17,030 nucleotides of DNA, from contig QMYG01000001.1 in NCBI GenBank assembly GCA_003662535.1, positions 1 to 17,030 on the forward strand, read 5' to 3'. The notes below the pieces were generated by a model. It was not told the DNA's origin. It worked only from the letters and a program-made list of their open reading frames with translations, and did no database searches. Shown piece after piece: positions 7,965 to 14,941 of the stretch; position 1 is the stretch's first letter; every line of letters begins with the position of its first letter. The DNA is from Candidatus Bathyarchaeota archaeon (lineage in GTDB: Archaea; Thermoproteota; Bathyarchaeia; EX4484-135; B24-G1). Both the position numbers and the translations under genes were made by a program.

Positions 7965-8781
7965 GTTCGCCTACTTTCTAAGCAAATACAGGCTTTCGAG
8001 GATAGAGTGGCTCCTGTCGAAAATCGGCGTCTACCGCTTTTACGAGAGGATGCTCCAACAACAGGTCATGCAGGGCGCAATGCCCGAACACATAGCAGTG
8101 ATTCTGGACGGAAACAGGAGATGGGCGAGGATGAGGTCGCTAAACCCTTGGATTGGCCACGAATACGGGGCTAAGAAGGTTAAGGAATTCCTGAGGTGGT
8201 GCTTGGAGCTAGGCGTGAAATCCATCACACTCTATGCACTTTCAACCGAGAACTTTAGGAGGCCTAAGCACGAACTCAGGGCCCTAATGAACATACTGAA
8301 GCAGAAGCTTAGGGAGGCAGCTGAAAACGAGGACATTCACAGGTATCAGGTCAAGGTGAAAGCGATAGGTAGGGTTGGTTCCCTTCCGGAGGATGTTCAG
8401 GAGGCCGTTAGATATTTGGAGAAGCGCACAAAGCACTATAACAAGAGGTTTTTGAACATCGCCATCGCCTATGGCGGAAGGGCTGAAATCGTAGACGCCG
8501 CTAGGAAGATAGCTGAGGCTGTAAAGTGTGGAAAACTAGAGCCTGAAGACATAGACGAGCATGTTTTCGAGAGCTTCCTTTATACGGCGCACCTTCCGAA
8601 GCAAGACCCAGACCTGATAATAAGGACTTCGGGCGAGGAGCGCCTAAGCGGCTTCCTGCTGTGGCAGTGCGCCTACAGCGAACTCTACTTCCTAGACGTC
8701 TACTGGCCTGATTTCAGGAAGATAGACCTCCTCAGGGCGATTAGGACTTACCAGCAGAGGCACAGGAGGTTTGGACGCTAA
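7930..8781 (+). CDS. uppS: cis-Prenyltransferase (polyprenyl diphosphate synthase)
   Basis: Extends allylic diphosphates with isopentenyl diphosphate in cis configuration to make the polyprenyl lipid carrier used for protein glycosylation and envelope polymers in archaea. The 283 residues contain all family motifs: HIAVILDGNRRWAR (54-67) with catalytic D60, HEYGAKKVKEFLRWCLELG (77-95), LYALSTENFRRP (101-112), IAIAYGGRAEIVDA (177-190), and DPDLIIRTSGEERLSGFLLWQ (226-246) followed by the AYSELYF region that holds the Mg-binding Glu. A 50-residue helical extension precedes the first motif, which is normal for archaeal members. GTG 7870 is also in frame but lies deep inside the MTAP gene. ATG 7930 has GGGTG seven bases upstream and still overlaps that gene by 35 bases. 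The gene ends in a 4-base convergent overlap with pepQ. Confidence 0.94.
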   Translation: MLASAARLLIDRFAYFLSKYRLSRIEWLLSKIGVYRFYERMLQQQVMQGAMPEHIAVILDGNRRWARMRSLNPWIGHEYGAKKVKEFLRWCLELGVKSITLYALSTENFRRPKHELRALMNILKQKLREAAENEDIHRYQVKVKAIGRVGSLPEDVQEAVRYLEKRTKHYNKRFLNIAIAYGGRAEIVDAARKIAEAVKCGKLEPEDIDEHVFESFLYTAHLPKQDPDLIIRTSGEERLSGFLLWQCAYSELYFLDVYWPDFRKIDLLRAIRTYQQRHRRFGR

Positions 8782-9842
8782 GCAACGGACAAGCCATAAC
8801 CAGCCTTCGTCAGCCTTTCCGCTCCCTCCTCCATCACCAGCACTGTGTCTTCTATGCGTATCCCCCCGTAGCCGGGAATATACACGCCCGGCTCTATGGT
8901 TATCACGTTTCCAGCCTTGAGTTTGGCCTTGCTTGCTTGGTTTAGCCTCGGGGGTTCATGTATTTCTAGTCCTACTCCGTGTCCTAGGCCGTGAACGAAG
9001 TATTTTGCCAGCCCATGCGTTTCTAGGGTTTTTCTTGCTTCTGCGTCTACCTCCCCAGCTTCCACACCAGCTCTCACGGCCTTTAGGGCTTTTTCTTGTG
9101 CCTCCCTCACAGCCTCGTAAAGCCGCAACTGTTTCTCTGTGGGTTTTCCAACCACATAGGTTCTTGTCAGGTCTGAGCAGTATCCAGCGTGCTTTGCACC
9201 CAAATCTATTATTACGAGGTCTCCCTCACGGATAGTCCTGTCGCTCGACCAGCCGTGTGGATAGGCAGACCTCGGGCCTGAAGCCACGATTGTCTCGAAG
9301 GCTGGGCCTTCTGCTCCGTTCCTCCTCATGGCGTATTCGGCTTCTGCTGCAACCTCATACTCCCTGACGCCCGGCCTCAAGGCCTCGAGGGCGGCCTCCA
9401 GCCCAAGCTCCGTGAGGTGGGCGGCCTCAGCCATCAGCTTTAGCTCTTCCTCGTCCTTCACAGTCCGCAGGCTCCAGACAACTTCGTCTACCTCCCTAAG
9501 CTCCGCAGCCGTGCCCAACAATTTCCCAAGTTTTTCGTATGTTTTTGCGTCTAAGAAGTCGAATCCGACGCTTCTACACCCAAGCTCCGCCACCTTCTCC
9601 GAAATAATCTTGTTTGGGTCGTCCTCGTATCTTAGCAGTTTTATGTCTATGCTGCTTAGCTCTTCCCTAGCTGCTTCATAGTCCACCCCATACACGTAGA
9701 GTGTTGGCTCTTCGTCCAGTGGGACAAGTAGGTAGGTGCCTCCACGAAAACCCGTGAAATATAGTATGTTTGGTTCTCGTGTTATCAGAGCTGCGTCTAT
9801 GCCGTTCTTCTGCATGGAATCCCTTAAACGCCTCAGCCGCAA
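8778..9842 (-). CDS. pepQ: Xaa-Pro dipeptidase / aminopeptidase (M24 family)
   Basis: A cytoplasmic metallopeptidase cleaving the bond before proline, 354 residues as usual for archaeal prolidases. The N-terminal creatinase-like domain spans about 1-125 (ILYFTGFRGGTYLLV, 26-40). The C-terminal pita-bread domain has the five metal ligands D213 (IIDLGA), D224 (CSDLTR), H288 (GLGHGVGLEIHE), E317 (TIEPGVY) and E331 (RIEDT). The start is TTG 9842, which has GAGGTGA six bases upstream, the best SD in the window; ATG 9815 is less likely. Only 32 bases separate this start from the divergent KH/PP-loop gene, so the two promoters must interlock with each other and with the start regions. Prolidase versus aminopeptidase P cannot be decided here. 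Confidence 0.94.
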   Translation of the reverse strand: MRLRRLRDSMQKNGIDAALITREPNILYFTGFRGGTYLLVPLDEEPTLYVYGVDYEAAREELSSIDIKLLRYEDDPNKIISEKVAELGCRSVGFDFLDAKTYEKLGKLLGTAAELREVDEVVWSLRTVKDEEELKLMAEAAHLTELGLEAALEALRPGVREYEVAAEAEYAMRRNGAEGPAFETIVASGPRSAYPHGWSSDRTIREGDLVIIDLGAKHAGYCSDLTRTYVVGKPTEKQLRLYEAVREAQEKALKAVRAGVEAGEVDAEARKTLETHGLAKYFVHGLGHGVGLEIHEPPRLNQASKAKLKAGNVITIEPGVYIPGYGGIRIEDTVLVMEEGAERLTKAGYGLSVA

Positions 9843-9874: not shown

Positions 9875-10900
9875 TTGTATACGCCTGAGGAAATTTCAAG
9901 GTTTGTGGCTGAGGTCAGGAAAGACCTTAAGCTGTTCAGCCTAGTCCAGCCGGAGATACTACGCATTCGCTACAGCCCCGAGGACGACTCTATGCTCATC
10001 ATAACGGCTGACAGGCCAGACAAGGCGGCGCTCCTCGGGCCTGGAGGCAGGGTGCTAAAAACTGTGAGGGACCGGCTAGGCATCGGGAGGGTGGCGGCCC
10101 GCTCCCAAACCCAGATAATGATCAAGCGTTTCCGTGTGGCTCTAGCGTTGAAGGCGGCTAAGAAGCTCCTATCTGAGGTAGACGGAGAAGCAAAGGAAAT
10201 CGTCAGGGACAGGATTTTGCCCATGCTTAGGAACGAGCTGAAGTATCCTGAGAGAAGGTGGCTTCGGATGTGGGAGCTCCCCTACCACGGGATAGCCGTC
10301 GCCTACTCAGGCGGGGTAGACAGCACCGCAAGCCTACTAATCGCTAAGCTGGCTGGACTAAACCCCATAGCCGTAACGGTAGACGCTGGAGGGTGGATGA
10401 TACCCCCGCACACGAAGCGAATAATAGAGGAAACCACCAAAAACCTCAACATACCACACAAATACCTCAAACCAAAAACAGAAATCTTCAACGAAATCCT
10501 GAGCTCAGCCGTAGAGGGGAGAAAACACCCATGTAAGGACTGCCACTGCCAAATAGAACACTTGGTCATGAAATTCTGCAAAGAAAACCACATTCCCATA
10601 GTTGGATTCGGAGACCTACTCCCAACGGGAAGATACTCCATATACATGGTTGAAAAGGGCCTCGTCAGATTCAACGTTGCAGCGGCCCTAAGCCTGACGA
10701 AAACGGACACCATTTTGGCGTCTAAGAGAGCGGGGCATCCGGGTTCTAGGCTCGTTTACGGCTGCCCATTACTCCGGTCTCTGCACAAGAGGCACCACCA
10801 CTTCAGATACGTCAGTATAGGCAGGGTTTTAAGGGAGTTGAGGGCTCAGGTGTTGGAGCCGTCTCAGGCGCTTAGATACGTGAAAAGCATTATAGGATGA
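9875..10900 (+). CDS. KH-domain PP-loop ATPase with CxxCxC cluster, substrate unknown
   Basis: A 341-residue fusion. Residues about 25-85 form a KH-like RNA-binding domain with its GxxG loop as GPGG (55-58). After a helical linker, the PP-loop AVAYSGGVDSTASLL (141-155) marks an ATP pyrophosphatase domain that adenylates a substrate, often a tRNA base. HPCKDCHC (218-225), C235 and a later YGCPLL (C297) resemble the Cys arrangement of tRNA thiolases such as TtcA/TtuA, where CxxC plus a distant Cys holds an Fe-S cluster or zinc. It fits the archaeal group of predicted PP-loop ATPases without assigned substrate. An RNA sulfur-modification role is inference; a different adenylating reaction is possible. 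The start is TTG 9875 because a TGA is in frame just upstream. smc begins 56 bases after its end. Confidence 0.82.
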   Translation: MYTPEEISRFVAEVRKDLKLFSLVQPEILRIRYSPEDDSMLIITADRPDKAALLGPGGRVLKTVRDRLGIGRVAARSQTQIMIKRFRVALALKAAKKLLSEVDGEAKEIVRDRILPMLRNELKYPERRWLRMWELPYHGIAVAYSGGVDSTASLLIAKLAGLNPIAVTVDAGGWMIPPHTKRIIEETTKNLNIPHKYLKPKTEIFNEILSSAVEGRKHPCKDCHCQIEHLVMKFCKENHIPIVGFGDLLPTGRYSIYMVEKGLVRFNVAAALSLTKTDTILASKRAGHPGSRLVYGCPLLRSLHKRHHHFRYVSIGRVLRELRAQVLEPSQALRYVKSIIG

Positions 10901-10956
10901 AAATCCTACTTTAATGCTTGAATACGTCGCAGGAAAGCGGGCTTGTGGTTGGTTCC

Positions 10957-13662
10957 ATGCCACGCATCAGGGAAGTCAGGCTGAGAAACTTCAAGAGCTT
11001 TGGGCAAAAAACGACCGTAATAAAGCTAGACAGCGGATTCACAGCCCTAACAGGGCCGAACGGAAGCGGAAAATCAAACATAATAGACGCAATACTCTTC
11101 GGACTAGGAGAACTAAGCGCAAAAAAGCTAAGAGCAGAACGCCTCACAAAACTCGTGAGAAACGGAGCAAGAAAGGCAGAGGTAATCATACAGTTCGACA
11201 ACTCCGACAGAAGCATACCAATAGACTCGAAAATAATAACAATATCTAGGGAGATAGACAGGAACGGGGAGTCGGTTTTTCGCTTAAATGGTAGACGAAT
11301 CCAACGCTTTGAGCTTTTAAACCTACTTTCTGTGGCTGGGATAGGGCCATCAGGCAGCAACATAGTTGCTCAGGGCACCATAACACACCTAACCACGATA
11401 TCACCGAACGAGAGGCGGAAAATCCTAGAGGACATTATCGGCATCTCGCAATATGACGCCCAAAAGGCCGAAGCGGAGGAGAAGCTTCGCAGGGCCGACG
11501 CCGCCCTAAAGGACGCTTTAGGACGTTCTGAGGAGATTAGGCGTAGACTCTGGGAGCTCGAGCGTGAAAGAAACGACCTTTTGCGGTATAGGCTTATCGA
11601 CAAGGAGTATAGGAGTCTAAAAGCCCTAGAAATATCCATCGTGATGGATGAACTGCGAAGCACGATGCGGGTCTTAACTGAGAAGCTGAGGGCGGAGGAA
11701 GAGAAGCTGGAACAGTTCCTTCAGAGACGAAGAGAGCTGGAGCAACAGATACAGCGGCTTGAGGAAGAAAGGGAGAAAATCAGGATGGAGGCGATGAAGG
11801 GCGGAGGGGACAGGCTTCCAGAGGTGAAGATGCAGATAGGTAGACTGGAGTCGAAGCTGAACAACCTAAACTACATCGTGAGGAACAGCCTAAAACGCAT
11901 AGAGGAACTAAACGAGGAGAGGGAAAGGAAAGCGAGGAGGCTAAAAACACTAATCGCAGACCTCAACCAGAAGAAAGCCGAGCTAGAGAAGCTCAAAAGC
12001 GAAAGAGACGAACTTGAGGAGAAGCTTCAGGAGGCTGAATCACGTGCTGAGTCTTTGAACTCTGCCCTGAGGGAGCTGATTGACCGCCAGAGCATAAGCG
12101 TGGAAGAAGCCCTAAAGCTTGGTAGACGCATAAAGGAGCTTTATTCAGGGCTCGTCTCCGCACAGCTCGGACTCATGTACGCCAGAGCCTCAAAGCTCTA
12201 CACGAGGAGGTGGATGGGAGACCACCAGTGGCACGTGCAGATATTAACCCAGCTATCAGGCATGCTGAGGGAGGCCTTCCGTGAGCAAAAAGCCCAACCT
12301 CAGGTTCCAGAGAGACTCCTTCTGAGCTTGAGAATAGCGAAAAACGCATTGGGGGAGTCGCAGCTGAGGCTGGAAATACTGCGGGAGCGCCTAAGCAGAC
12401 TTGCGGAGGTGGAGCGTTCAGCCCAAGCGAGGGTTCAGCCCCTCCTAGAGGAGCTTGGGAGGGAACAGCGTAGACTGAGCGAGATGCAGGAGGCCCTAAA
12501 CCCGCAAAGACTACACAACTTACAAGAGCAGGCCAGAAAAGCAAACGAGGAACTGAGGACTCTACAGGCACGCCTAAATCAGGTAAAGGCGAGGGAAGAG
12601 AGCCTAAAACTACAGCTGGAAAACGTCTTAGAGCCAGAAATACAGGCACTAAAGAGGGAGATTCCTCGGATAGACCAGAAAATTTTAGAGTTTAGGGAGG
12701 AGATGGAGAAGGCTTTGTCCGAGAAGGCGGAAGCCGAGGAGAGGCTCCGTGAGCTGAGGGAGGCTGCTGAAGAACTGTCTTCGAAGCTTTCAGGGGCTCA
12801 GGAGTTGGAGAAGTCCCTGACGGCGCAGATTGAGGAGGTGAGGTCTAGGCTCAGGGAGCTAGACGGCGAATACGAGGAGCAACGTAGACTGATAGAGGAA
12901 ATCCGCATAACCCTTGGGGATATTCAGGGAGCGCTGAACCGCCAACTCGCAAGCCTAAGAAGCCTAGGCTACGAAGACCCCATCGAAATTCCAGAGAAAC
13001 CCCTGAAAAACCTCCACAGCAAGCTAGAAGCCCTAAAAAAGGAGCGAAAAAACCTAGAGAATAACGTAAATCAGCTCGCATTAAAACGCTACGAGGAGGA
13101 GGTAAGCAGATACAAGCGAATATCGAGCAAGTTGAACGAATTGGAAAGAGATAGGGATGCAATACTGAAATTCATAGAAGAGATAGAGCAGAGAAAACGC
13201 AAAGCCTTCCTAGAGGCCTTCAACAAACTGAACAAGAGGTTCTCACAGCTCTTCACGAAGCTAACCGGAGAGGGCAAAGCACGCTTAGAGCTGGAGAACC
13301 CAAGCGACCCCTTCTCCGGGGGCATGGACATCCTCGTCCAGTTCCCGGGGAAGCCGGAAATGCCTGTGAGCGGGGCGAGCGGGGGCGAGCGTTCTGTAAC
13401 GGCTGTTGCCTTTCTTCTCGCCCTTCAGCAGTTCACGCCCTCGTCCTTCTACATCTTCGACGAGATAGACGCCCACCTAGACCCCTACTACGTGGATAAG
13501 CTCGGAGAACTGCTCTCCGAGGAGTCCAAGAAGTCTCAGTTTATAGTGATAAGCCTGAAACCGGAGCTTGTCAGGAAGGCGGGAAAGATTTATGGACTGT
13601 ATTTCCAGCGTGGCTGCAGCCACGTGGTTCCACTGCCAAAGGAGGCTGAAAGCGTTGACTAA
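10957..13662 (+). CDS. smc: SMC chromosome-segregation ATPase, short, no recognisable hinge
   Basis: Structural-maintenance-of-chromosomes ATPase of the condensin type, 901 residues from ATG 10957. The N-terminal head has VRLRNFKSFG (7-16), Walker A GPNGSGKS (33-40) and the Q-loop (Q138). The C-terminal head has signature SGASGGERS (805-813), Walker B FYIFDEID (831-838) and D-loop AHLD (839-842), and ends with VISLKPELV, as in true SMC rather than Rad50. Coiled-coil arms run about 165-380 and 465-745, unequal and shorter than usual. Between them (about 381-462) I see mainly helical sequence without the Gly-rich hinge motifs, and no CxxC zinc hook; the only Cys is near the C-terminus. Typical SMCs are near 1,170 residues. 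Upstream GTG 10945 and TTG 10918 are alternative starts. It overlaps scpA by eight bases, so complex formation with ScpAB is expected. Confidence 0.9.
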   Translation: MPRIREVRLRNFKSFGQKTTVIKLDSGFTALTGPNGSGKSNIIDAILFGLGELSAKKLRAERLTKLVRNGARKAEVIIQFDNSDRSIPIDSKIITISREIDRNGESVFRLNGRRIQRFELLNLLSVAGIGPSGSNIVAQGTITHLTTISPNERRKILEDIIGISQYDAQKAEAEEKLRRADAALKDALGRSEEIRRRLWELERERNDLLRYRLIDKEYRSLKALEISIVMDELRSTMRVLTEKLRAEEEKLEQFLQRRRELEQQIQRLEEEREKIRMEAMKGGGDRLPEVKMQIGRLESKLNNLNYIVRNSLKRIEELNEERERKARRLKTLIADLNQKKAELEKLKSERDELEEKLQEAESRAESLNSALRELIDRQSISVEEALKLGRRIKELYSGLVSAQLGLMYARASKLYTRRWMGDHQWHVQILTQLSGMLREAFREQKAQPQVPERLLLSLRIAKNALGESQLRLEILRERLSRLAEVERSAQARVQPLLEELGREQRRLSEMQEALNPQRLHNLQEQARKANEELRTLQARLNQVKAREESLKLQLENVLEPEIQALKREIPRIDQKILEFREEMEKALSEKAEAEERLRELREAAEELSSKLSGAQELEKSLTAQIEEVRSRLRELDGEYEEQRRLIEEIRITLGDIQGALNRQLASLRSLGYEDPIEIPEKPLKNLHSKLEALKKERKNLENNVNQLALKRYEEEVSRYKRISSKLNELERDRDAILKFIEEIEQRKRKAFLEAFNKLNKRFSQLFTKLTGEGKARLELENPSDPFSGGMDILVQFPGKPEMPVSGASGGERSVTAVAFLLALQQFTPSSFYIFDEIDAHLDPYYVDKLGELLSEESKKSQFIVISLKPELVRKAGKIYGLYFQRGCSHVVPLPKEAESVD

Positions 13663-14314
13663 AACGAGGAAGCCCTTTTATCTCAAGCCTCCTTGGGAGG
13701 TGCTTTTCGCCGTTCACCGCCTGAAGAGCGTTGAGCCTTGGGAGATTAAACTTTATAGCCTTCTGCCCTCGCTCTTGCAGGAGATGGAGAAGCACGGGGG
13801 TGTGGATTTTAAGGCTTCAGGCGTGGCTCTGCATTCCTCGGCCACCATATACCTCATGAAGTCCGCCCTACTACTCGAGGAGCCGAGGCGAGAGGAACCC
13901 GTCAGGGATGAAGTTCCACCACCCATAAGTCTACCTTTAAGGAGGGGGCTCGTCTCCATAGAGCTGGAGCAGCTCGTAGGCCAGCTTAGGGAAGCCCTAG
14001 AGAAGGAGCAGCGTGTAGGCAGGCCAGTGAGGTGGATGCCGCCGCCGGTAGAGCTGCTCCCAGACCCGAAGCAGTTCCTCTTAGAGATAGAGAAGCGCAT
14101 GGAAAACCTCCATGAAAGGCTGGTGAATCTTTCGCAGGGCGAAAGCATCCCCCTAAGCACGCTCCTACAGGGGATGGAGTGGCTGGAGGCAGTAAAGCTC
14201 TTCATCACGCTGCTCTTCCTAGCCCAGAAGGAGAAAGTCTACCTATACGAGGTAGACGGAGAAATATACATATCTCTAGAGCCTGTCGAATACGGCGAAG
14301 AAGAGGAGGCGTAA
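13655..14314 (+). CDS. scpA: Segregation and condensation protein A (kleisin)
   Basis: The kleisin that bridges the two SMC heads, 219 residues. The N-terminal domain (about 12-75) has the family pattern WEVLFAVHRLKSVEPWEIKL (14-33) followed by VDFKASGVALHSSATIYLMKSALLL, helices that pack on the SMC neck. A proline-rich flexible linker (about 77-140) follows, and a C-terminal winged-helix region (about 165-210, ending VYLYEVDGEIYISL) should bind the other head. An acidic EEEEA closes the protein. The frame extends far upstream into smc in another register, but TTG 13655 is the start: GGAGG lies nine bases before it, and the resulting product aligns with the family start. Its first eight bases overlap the end of smc, indicating translational coupling and matched stoichiometry. 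Confidence 0.88.
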   Translation: MTKTRKPFYLKPPWEVLFAVHRLKSVEPWEIKLYSLLPSLLQEMEKHGGVDFKASGVALHSSATIYLMKSALLLEEPRREEPVRDEVPPPISLPLRRGLVSIELEQLVGQLREALEKEQRVGRPVRWMPPPVELLPDPKQFLLEIEKRMENLHERLVNLSQGESIPLSTLLQGMEWLEAVKLFITLLFLAQKEKVYLYEVDGEIYISLEPVEYGEEEEA

Positions 14315-14374: not shown

Positions 14375-14941
14375 TTGGGGGCAGATTTTGATGAACGCCT
14401 AGCACTCGTCGAGGCAGCGCTCTACGCAACAGGTAGACCGCTAAGCTGGCGTGAACTCGCATCAGTCCTCGGCGAAAGCTCGAAGGACGAGGTGCTAAAG
14501 CTGGCCAGAACCCTCGTGAAGGAATATAGACGCAGAGGCGGAGCCCTAGAAGTCGTGGAGCTTCAGGGTGAGAGGTTCGTCCTTCAGCTTAAACCCAGCT
14601 ACGCCCTCCGTGTCCGCCCACTAATGCCGAAGTTTCCGTCCAAAGCCGCCCTGAGAACCCTCGCCTACATAGCCTTCAAGCAGCCCGTCCTGCAGTCGAG
14701 GGTGATAAAGGTTCGGGGGAGCCACGCCTACAAGCATTTGAAGATGCTCGAGGCACTGGGCTTCATCACACGGGAGAAGAACCAGAGGGGGAAAATAGTT
14801 ATAAGAACAACCGAGCTCTTCTCCGAATACCTGAACCTAAGCAAGGAGCCGAGAAGGATGAAACGCCAACTTCAGGAGAAACTTAAAGCAGAGAACATAC
14901 AAACATACCTCCAGAAAGAAAAACACAAAGAGGGGGGCTAG
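14375..14941 (+). CDS. scpB: Segregation and condensation protein B
   Basis: The winged-helix partner of ScpA in the SMC complex, 188 residues. The first winged helix is near 4-70 (RLALVEAALYATGRPLSWREL then EVVELQGERFVLQL), the second near 80-155 (SKAALRTLAYIAFKQPVLQSRVIKVRGSHAYKHLKMLEALGFI), the classic ScpB pattern in which RG..A/S.KHL replaces the bacterial RG..... segment. A Lys/Arg/Glu-rich tail of about 30 residues follows and might contact DNA or ScpA. The start is TTG 14375 with GGAGGT six bases upstream. It lies 60 bases after scpA, across a dyad, and four bases before the phosphatase gene. Having both scpA and scpB beside smc argues that this is the cell's condensin locus. Confidence 0.87.
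   Translation: MGADFDERLALVEAALYATGRPLSWRELASVLGESSKDEVLKLARTLVKEYRRRGGALEVVELQGERFVLQLKPSYALRVRPLMPKFPSKAALRTLAYIAFKQPVLQSRVIKVRGSHAYKHLKMLEALGFITREKNQRGKIVIRTTELFSEYLNLSKEPRRMKRQLQEKLKAENIQTYLQKEKHKEGG

What the first reader, a model, noticed from the sequence alone, without database searches (positions are those of the whole stretch)
10957..13662. Short SMC without a recognisable hinge, in an smc-scpA-scpB operon
Seen: canonical SMC head motifs (Walker A 33-40, signature 805-813, Walker B 831-838) but only about 901 residues, with unequal coil arms of about 215 and 280 residues. The centre (381-462) is helix-like, lacks the glycine-rich hinge signatures and has no Cys for a Rad50-type zinc hook. 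Known: hinge-mediated dimerisation is central to SMC function. Inference: this condensin dimerises by a reduced or novel tip, or through ScpA/ScpB alone. The protein could then form a kleisin-closed ring or clamp with a different opening geometry. Keeping scpA and scpB in overlapping order suggests a working complex rather than decay.
Basis: partly seen in the sequence, partly recalled or inferred. Interest (0 to 1): 0.78.

Follow-up and report, generated by a model that had tools for sequence, protein, structure and literature searches.

The report
Archaeal chromosome-folding SMC without hinge
An archaeon has lost the hinge domain that normally joins the two halves of its DNA-folding SMC machine, yet kept its motor heads, arms and partner genes, which suggests that a part usually called essential can be replaced.

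Summary
The smc gene (10957-13662, 901 aa) has intact ATPase motifs and no SMC_hinge domain and is followed by scpA and scpB. It is not an assembly deletion: five near-identical relatives (906-910 aa, 52% identity) lack the hinge too, while the other 114 of the 120 best hits have it. The hinge-less six form one clade (100/100) among hinge-bearing Bathyarchaeia-like SMCs. About 287 profile positions centred on the hinge are gone. The arms are equal, about 280 residues each, joined by a turn at 444-451, not 215 and 280. Residues 379-443 of the N arm lost heptad pattern below all 22 canonical controls in both lineages; hydrophobicity and charge leave the range clearly only in the window protein. 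This is a candidate dimer tip, unproven. In the two held sister-family genomes no smc or scpB was found. Hinge-less SMCs are in print for marine Actinobacteria (PMC12153180). I also found them across a candidate-phyla class: hinge in 0 of 55 genomes, SMC in 36. New variant of a known kind.

The parts
10957..13662 (+). smc, 901 aa, hinge-less SMC ATPase
   Evidence: ORF; SMC_N 9e-63, no SMC_hinge at E<=10; TIGR02169 2.1e-165 but 552 bits, under its 729 cut-off, in two stretches
10957..11451 (+). N-terminal half of the ATPase head (about residues 1-165)
   Evidence: alignment to canonical SMCs and PDB chains; boundary approximate
11053..11076 (+). Walker A GPNGSGKS, residues 33-40
   Evidence: sequence
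11452..12285 (+). N arm of the coiled coil, about residues 166-443
   Evidence: profile alignment, AlphaFold helices up to 443/444
12091..12285 (+). remodelled distal N arm, residues 379-443: weak heptads, hydrophobic; candidate dimer tip
   Evidence: heptad score 0.32 (P0003 0.41) against 0.46-0.70 in 22 canonical SMCs
12286..12309 (+). hairpin turn, residues 444-451, in place of the hinge
   Evidence: AlphaFold turn 445-451 / 444-450; 6-residue length difference between lineages here; midpoint 440-447 from profile offsets
12310..13140 (+). C arm of the coiled coil, about residues 452-728
   Evidence: profile alignment, AlphaFold
13141..13659 (+). C-terminal half of the ATPase head, about residues 729-901
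   Evidence: alignment; boundary approximate
13369..13395 (+). ABC signature SGASGGERS, residues 805-813
   Evidence: sequence
13447..13470 (+). Walker B FYIFDEID, residues 831-838
   Evidence: sequence
13655..14314 (+). scpA kleisin, 219 aa, TTG start inside the end of smc
   Evidence: profile of 14 class ScpAs E 3.5e-69; 34-45% identity to them; PDB 6ivh 2.9e-6; no Pfam match by itself
14375..14941 (+). scpB kite protein, 188 aa
   Evidence: PF04079 2.1e-30; TIGR00281 89.9 over 89.2 bits; PDB 6juv 3.5e-33
9875..10900 (+). PP-loop ATPase upstream of smc, a synteny marker kept in the sister family
   Evidence: 49% and 48% identity in G001 and G002, no match in G008, G013, G028; 32% in 1 of 16 class smc loci; only weak PP-loop Pfam hits
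8778..9842 (-). M24 peptidase, divergent neighbour, a synteny marker
   Evidence: PF00557 1e-79; also in G001 and G002 and in 6 of 16 class smc loci read

Best explanation
It is the orthologous SMC subunit of an archaeal Smc-ScpA(-ScpB) condensin that has lost its hinge. Shown by sequence: the ATPase head motifs and kleisin gene are kept, about 287 positions centred on the hinge are removed, and the equal arms are closed by a short turn into a helical hairpin. Inferred: it still works as an ATP-driven DNA clamp or loop-former. Two hairpins are held together at the heads by ATP-dependent engagement and by ScpA, along the arms by rod contacts, and at the far end by the remodelled hydrophobic helical tip (379-443 and its partner strand) acting as a replacement dimer interface. 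The hinge-based gate and DNA-binding surface would be absent, so DNA would enter through the kleisin or head gates or a weak tip.
For: No SMC_hinge in the protein or in the held part of the genome. The same architecture in five relatives at 52% identity, two of them (P0003, P0006) rescanned by Pfam, while a hinge profile finds the hinge in 114 of the 120 best hits and in none of P0001-P0006. Hinge-less clade 100/100 nested among hinge-bearing class SMCs and outside the class SMC-like paralogue. smc-scpA-scpB order as in 14 of 16 class loci read. Hinge-centred cut, 441+441 residues in P0003, turn at 444-451. Arm statistics stay in or near the canonical range except in 379-443. Head identity of 74% to P0002 against about 30-38% in the distal arms fits continued selection on the ATPase. 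In B. [quoted passage not shown] Rod contacts are said probably to contribute to dimerisation of hinge-less Smc (PMC5526789 passage, citing Minnen 2016).
Against: No dimer was modelled or measured; the AlphaFold models are single chains with pTM 0.29 and 0.35 and poor head confidence. The tip change rests on two independent lineages and one simple score; in P0003 the hydrophobic index only reaches the canonical maximum and the charged fraction lies inside the canonical range, and tip identity between lineages is only slightly above the rest of the arms. No smc was found in the sister family, which also fits relaxed constraint. The genome is 58.5% complete, so a second SMC cannot be excluded.
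Confidence: 0.55

Rival explanations
1. A working hinge-less SMC with no distal dimer contact: two hairpins are held only by the heads, ScpA and arm rods, giving an open V or kleisin-closed clamp.
For: Everything that supports hinge loss; rod contacts are said probably to contribute to dimerisation of hinge-less Smc (PMC5526789 passage). No known dimer motif: the only Cys is C887.
Against: The distal N arm no longer scores as ordinary coil, which plain truncation does not predict.
Confidence: 0.25
2. A gene in decline: the hinge was lost under weak constraint, on the way to the full loss seen in the sister family.
For: In G001 and G002 (85% and 75% complete) no smc and no scpB was found, and they keep the upstream neighbours without smc behind them.
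Against: All ATPase motifs are intact; length is kept within 9 residues over about 48% sequence divergence; heads are 74% identical; the cut is hinge-centred and keeps the arms in register; scpA and scpB are intact.
Confidence: 0.1
3. The hinge function is supplied in trans, for example by pairing with the second SMC-like protein of about 640-760 aa common in the class.
For: A fragment of an SMC-like paralogue is in the same genome (C103), and second, weaker SMC-like matches occur in about 36 of the 41 genomes (my count of rows, not each identified).
Against: That paralogue has no SMC_hinge (at most one hinge match per genome) and no CxxC in the 18 loci read or in the two read; it coexists with canonical SMC in class relatives.
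Confidence: 0.05
4. Assembly deletion or a hidden divergent hinge.
For: Single MAG, 121 contigs.
Against: Five relatives from other contigs share it, and a near-copy with 3 substitutions has the same length; only a 7-residue non-helical turn lies between the arms in both models.
Confidence: 0.02

Closest known systems
Canonical archaeal/bacterial SMC of Smc-ScpAB condensin (TIGR02169 / TIGR02168)
   Same: Head motifs, long antiparallel arms, scpA and scpB neighbours as in class relatives, head clade
   Different: No hinge, about 287 positions fewer, remodelled distal N arm; scores under the TIGR02169 and TIGR02168 cut-offs
'Hinge-less' SMC variants of marine Actinobacteria (PMC12153180, section 15 and passages read)
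   Same: No hinge, no CxxC, coiled-coil hairpin, not seen in tandem with a regular SMC
   Different: Archaeal clade, so most likely a separate loss; here the operon, hinge-bearing relatives and a sister family without the complex are shown. That paper's sequences were not compared here
Rad50/SbcC
   Same: Head plus hairpin coil without an SMC hinge
   Different: No CxxC hook; NCBIfam Rad50 NF003034 145 bits against a cut-off of 700; scpA/scpB neighbours
ASRP / coalescin ClsN (PMC9389158, passages)
   Same: Archaeal, SMC-like, no SMC hinge
   Different: The passages say that the vast majority of ASRPs carry a zinc hook; NF045487 114 bits against a cut-off of 300; the window gene lies in the SMC clade
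Short hinge-less SMCs of a candidate-phyla (CPR) class (this work)
   Same: SMC heads, no hinge, no CxxC in the four distinct proteins read, ScpB in 35 of 55 genomes
   Different: Group with Bacillota SMCs, and shorter (34 of 36 genomes read 674-855 aa), so an independent loss

Membership tests
SMC subunit of Smc-ScpAB (prokaryotic condensin), canonical architecture | ABC-type head with Walker A, signature, Walker B | tested here: met
   residues 33-40, 805-813, 831-838
SMC subunit of Smc-ScpAB (prokaryotic condensin), canonical architecture | SMC_hinge domain (PF06470) | tested here: not met
   no hit at E<=10, none in the held genome, own hinge profile misses its near-copy P0001, 7-residue turn instead
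SMC subunit of Smc-ScpAB (prokaryotic condensin), canonical architecture | kleisin ScpA and kite ScpB partner genes | tested here: met
SMC subunit of Smc-ScpAB (prokaryotic condensin), canonical architecture | descent within the SMC clade and same operon as relatives | tested here: met
   trees; smc-scpA-scpB order in 14 of 16 class loci read, an upstream window gene in 8 of 16
SMC subunit of Smc-ScpAB (prokaryotic condensin), canonical architecture | homodimerisation at the distal end and DNA loop or entrapment activity | not testable with these tools
   no multimer prediction or experiment
Rad50/SbcC | CxxC zinc hook at the coil tip | tested here: not met
   one Cys only, C887; relatives have one at 325 or 328
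Rad50/SbcC | score over the family cut-off | tested here: not met
   145 against 700 bits
ASRP / coalescin | NF045487 score and zinc hook | tested here: not met
   114 against 300 bits; no CxxC
MukB | MukB N-terminal domain (PF04310) | tested here: not met
   8.9 against 23 bits, E 1.6
Hinge-less SMC of marine Actinobacteria | no hinge and no CxxC in an SMC-clade protein | tested here: met
Hinge-less SMC of marine Actinobacteria | actinobacterial clade | tested here: inconclusive
   the window sits in the archaeal clade, but that paper's sequences were not in the tree

The most novel reading that the evidence does not exclude
The SMC hinge is dispensable in nature and has been lost several times: in this archaeal lineage, in marine Actinobacteria (in print), and across most of one candidate-phyla bacterial phylum. 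Hinge-less SMCs then close their arms with a helical hairpin whose tip is remodelled into a new dimer contact. Condensin would work there without a hinge gate, and in the archaeal order hinge loss may be a step on the way to losing the complex altogether.
Probability: 0.45. Interest if true: 0.85.

Novelty: new variant of a known kind. Interest (0 to 1): 0.7.

Why it matters
Models of SMC ring loading and loop extrusion give the hinge a central role in dimerisation, DNA binding and gating. Natural hinge-less condensins that keep ScpA and ScpB genes are ready-made tests of which steps really need it, and B. subtilis experiments already hint that the kind of dimer domain is uncritical (PMC5344682). 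The archaeal case also has hinge-bearing close relatives and a sister family in which no SMC complex was found, so the path of loss can be studied. The candidate-phyla bacteria would make hinge-less condensin common rather than a curiosity.

Tried and rejected
Rejected: assembly deletion, hidden hinge, zinc hook, membership in the class SMC-like paralogue, unequal arms. A search with the tip region alone (P0003 360-500) found only P0002-P0006 (5 proteins), so the archaeal clade is two lineages: the window with its near-copy, and five near-identical relatives that count as one. Short length alone is not hinge loss: L062 (830 aa) and L034 (978 aa) keep PF06470. A central heptad dip was looked for in other hinge-less groups: weak in four CPR proteins, absent in 18 class paralogues, so the tip idea does not carry over simply. 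The ScpA query and the ScpA row printed were in a wrong frame (start 13656); the profile search used all window frames and is valid, and redid the alignment from 13655. Fold search was not run, because model confidence is low and a hairpin coil gives uninformative matches. The class name Bathyarchaeia is inferred from named relatives, not told by a tool. Upstream synteny is not general: 8 of 16 class smc loci read show M24, UPPS or PP-loop near smc; the other 8, among them six relatives from the clade nearest in the tree and G008, whose contig ends at smc, show none in the stretch read.

Rows dropped: L060 (frame broken) from the tree; L060, P0004-P0006, the G000 paralogue fragment and the gappy G018 paralogue from the tree; L143 read in a wrong frame and not used; L140 is identical to L100. 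One search used P0003 only of the five near-identical relatives. In one search, of 36 genomes with a match 34 read 674-855 aa (four of these with a stop inside a matched stretch: G047, G049, G077, G079); G045 is a fragment (514) and G091's frame length (23226) cannot be interpreted. G015 and G020 lack PF06470; by position and contig length their SMC frames run into contig ends.
Full report
What was checked. The window's smc reads 901 aa from ATG 10957 (an upstream TTG at 10918 would give 914). Pfam-A finds SMC_N at 9e-63 and no SMC_hinge up to E 10. The own genome (721,938 bases, 121 contigs, 58.5% complete) has 0 matches to PF06470, while the control rings in 10 of 14 known genomes. NCBIfam's best family is SMC_prok_A, 2.1e-165 but 552 bits against a cut-off of 729, in two stretches. 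The only cysteine is C887.

It is not an artefact. A search of about 5.8 billion proteins (3799 hits, best 120 listed) gave five further proteins of 906-910 aa, 52% identical over the full length, without PF06470, and P0001, a copy of the window protein with 3 substitutions. The other 114 are 1172-1190 aa, and a hinge profile made from 22 class SMCs finds the hinge in 114 of 114 of them and in none of P0001-P0006. P0003 and P0006 were also rescanned with Pfam and show no hinge among the 25 best families at E<=1. The five relatives are near-identical, so the evidence is two independent lineages. A search with the tip region alone found the same five.

Orthology. A tree of head and neighbouring arm sequences (57 rows, 417 columns) puts the window and P0002-P0006 in one clade, 100/100, beside 13 hinge-bearing SMCs (100/100 for the 19 together) that include proteins named Bathyarchaeia or Bathyarchaeota. 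A second, quick tree shows that they are not the class SMC-like paralogue. In 16 class smc loci read, scpB follows smc in 14 and an ScpA-type ORF lies between them in those 14. Upstream, M24 is near smc in 6 of 16, UPPS in 5 and the PP-loop gene in 1, so at least one window neighbour in 8 of 16; HypE lies beyond scpB in 2. The other 8 loci, among them six relatives from the clade nearest in the tree and G008, whose contig ends at smc, show none of these neighbours in the stretch read; so the smc-scpA-scpB operon is the safe synteny and the upstream order is only partly shared. PF06470 is present in 36 of 41 class genomes including the own one in the 41, and in 27 of 27 that are at least 90% complete and at most 5% contaminated; it is missing in the own genome, G001, G002, G015 and G020. 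G001 and G002, the only other held genomes of the order, have no SMC match (G001 none; G002's best is the paralogue at 4.2e-19) and no scpB. They keep DUF373, MTAP, UPPS, M24 and the PP-loop gene in the window's order (DUF373 partial in G002), but behind the PP-loop gene lie unrelated ORFs, not smc. With 85% and 75% completeness, joint absence by chance would be about 4% if independent (my arithmetic).

Anatomy. A profile of 22 canonical class SMCs aligns to P0003 in two blocks, 1-441 to positions 6-454 and 459-899 to 742-1182; to the window protein, 1-403 to 6-416 and 465-895 to 754-1183. About 287 positions (455-741) are missing in P0003, centred at 598; the Pfam hinge core of P0012 is 531-642, centred near 591 in profile numbering. 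So the hinge and distal arm on each side are removed and the arms stay in register. Two AlphaFold models (6 and 25 sequences; mean pLDDT 66.9 and 74.5, pTM 0.29 and 0.35) both show one turn, 445-451 or 444-450, between long helices, and matching arm breaks at about 280-286 and 607-615, symmetric about 447. Heads are poorly modelled, and the models say nothing about dimers. Arms are thus about 280 residues each, not 215 and 280. In engineered B. subtilis Smc, function falls gradually from an arm of 344 to one of 321 residues, is lost over a large range, and returns at 267-253 (PMC5344682 passages); how 280 compares is unclear, because boundaries are defined differently.

The tip. Heptad contrast along the arms of the window protein and P0003 is at canonical levels in the segments compared, except in 379-443: 0.32 and 0.41, against 0.58 (0.46-0.70) in the aligned segment of 22 canonical SMCs. 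Hydrophobic index is 0.40 and 0.35 against 0.25-0.35; charged fraction 0.21 and 0.33 against 0.31-0.49. So P0003 leaves the range on heptads only and touches the top of the hydrophobic range. This suggests remodelling into something other than a two-strand coil. A replacement dimer contact is the most likely use, but it is inference. Conservation between the lineages there is only slightly above that of the other arm segments, and other hinge-less groups show the dip weakly or not at all.

Partners. ScpA (219 aa, TTG 13655) has no Pfam hit by itself, as PF02616 is weak in this class (19 of 41 genomes), but a profile of 14 class ScpAs finds it at 3.5e-69, 34-45% identical, and T. onnurineus ScpA 6ivh at 2.9e-6 (organism from PMC7055376). 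ScpB is clear. [quoted passage not shown]

Literature. Searches for hinge-less, hingeless, 'lack the hinge' and 'without hinge' with SMC listed three different papers; of the two opened, one describes natural hinge-less SMCs, in marine Actinobacteria (PMC12153180, section 15 read, passages); PMC8327961 was seen as a listing only. Searches for SMC and hinge with Parcubacteria or Patescibacteria, and for SMC and ScpB with candidate phyla radiation, listed 0, 1 and 1 papers, none on this by title or passages (of PMC7203096 only the first 300,000 of 769,434 characters are held, and PMC9734747 was seen as a listing only). The held library is open-access only, so this is not proof of absence. The B. 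subtilis zinc-hook swap supports normal growth on rich medium (PMC5344682, section 12).

Beyond the window. Two loci from the genome scan (Lloydbacteria L100, 757 aa; Ryanbacteria L104, 710 aa) have no hinge either, nor has either genome (0 of 2). They match SMC_prok_B at 1.1e-149 and 1.8e-167, both under the cut-off, group with Bacillota SMCs and have no CxxC. In 55 genomes of L100's class an SMC match at E<=1e-30 occurs in 36, of which 34 read 674-855 aa, PF06470 in 0 and ScpB in 35. In a 116-genome phylum sample PF06470 occurs in 4, 3 over the cut-off; SMC presence was not scored there. This looks like an independent and far wider loss, and raises the interest of the finding.

Verdict. A real, conserved, orthologous hinge-less SMC: a new variant of a known kind. 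By descent it is the SMC of Smc-ScpAB; by architecture it fails the hinge criterion and should be filed as a hinge-less variant. How it dimerises is open. My estimates: functional hinge-less SMC about 0.88; with a distal tip contact about 0.55.

Noticed in passing
L100:6001-8271, L104:6001-8130 and the class and phylum of L100's genome (G041): Short SMCs without a hinge across a candidate-phyla bacterial class: PF06470 in 0 of 55 genomes, SMC match in 36, ScpB in 35; no CxxC in the four distinct proteins read; in a phylum sample PF06470 in 4 of 116.
   Followed up: partly
G000:C103:2542-3351 (L139), L138:2695-4605, L150-L167: A second SMC-like protein of about 640-760 aa common in the window's class (weaker matches in about 36 of 41 genomes, not each identified), no CxxC in the 18 loci read, own clade (SH-aLRT 100). 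Best NCBIfam match for G002's copy is SMC_prok_A 2.9e-67, ASRP weaker.
   Followed up: partly
L118/L136 (G001:C18), L119/L137 (G002:C58): Sister family keeps DUF373-MTAP-UPPS-M24-PPloop but no smc or scpB was found behind them or elsewhere; in G001 a glycosyltransferase-like ORF (my reading of the sequence) ends 4 bases away.
   Followed up: yes
L062:3792-6281 and L034:6001-8934: SMCs of 830 and 978 aa (an Aenigmatarchaeota and a Bacilli MAG) that keep the hinge, so their arms must be short instead.
   Followed up: no
P0001 (905 aa, 9145-base contig): A near-copy of the window's SMC with 3 substitutions over 901 residues, hinge-less too: a strain-level confirmation.
   Followed up: partly
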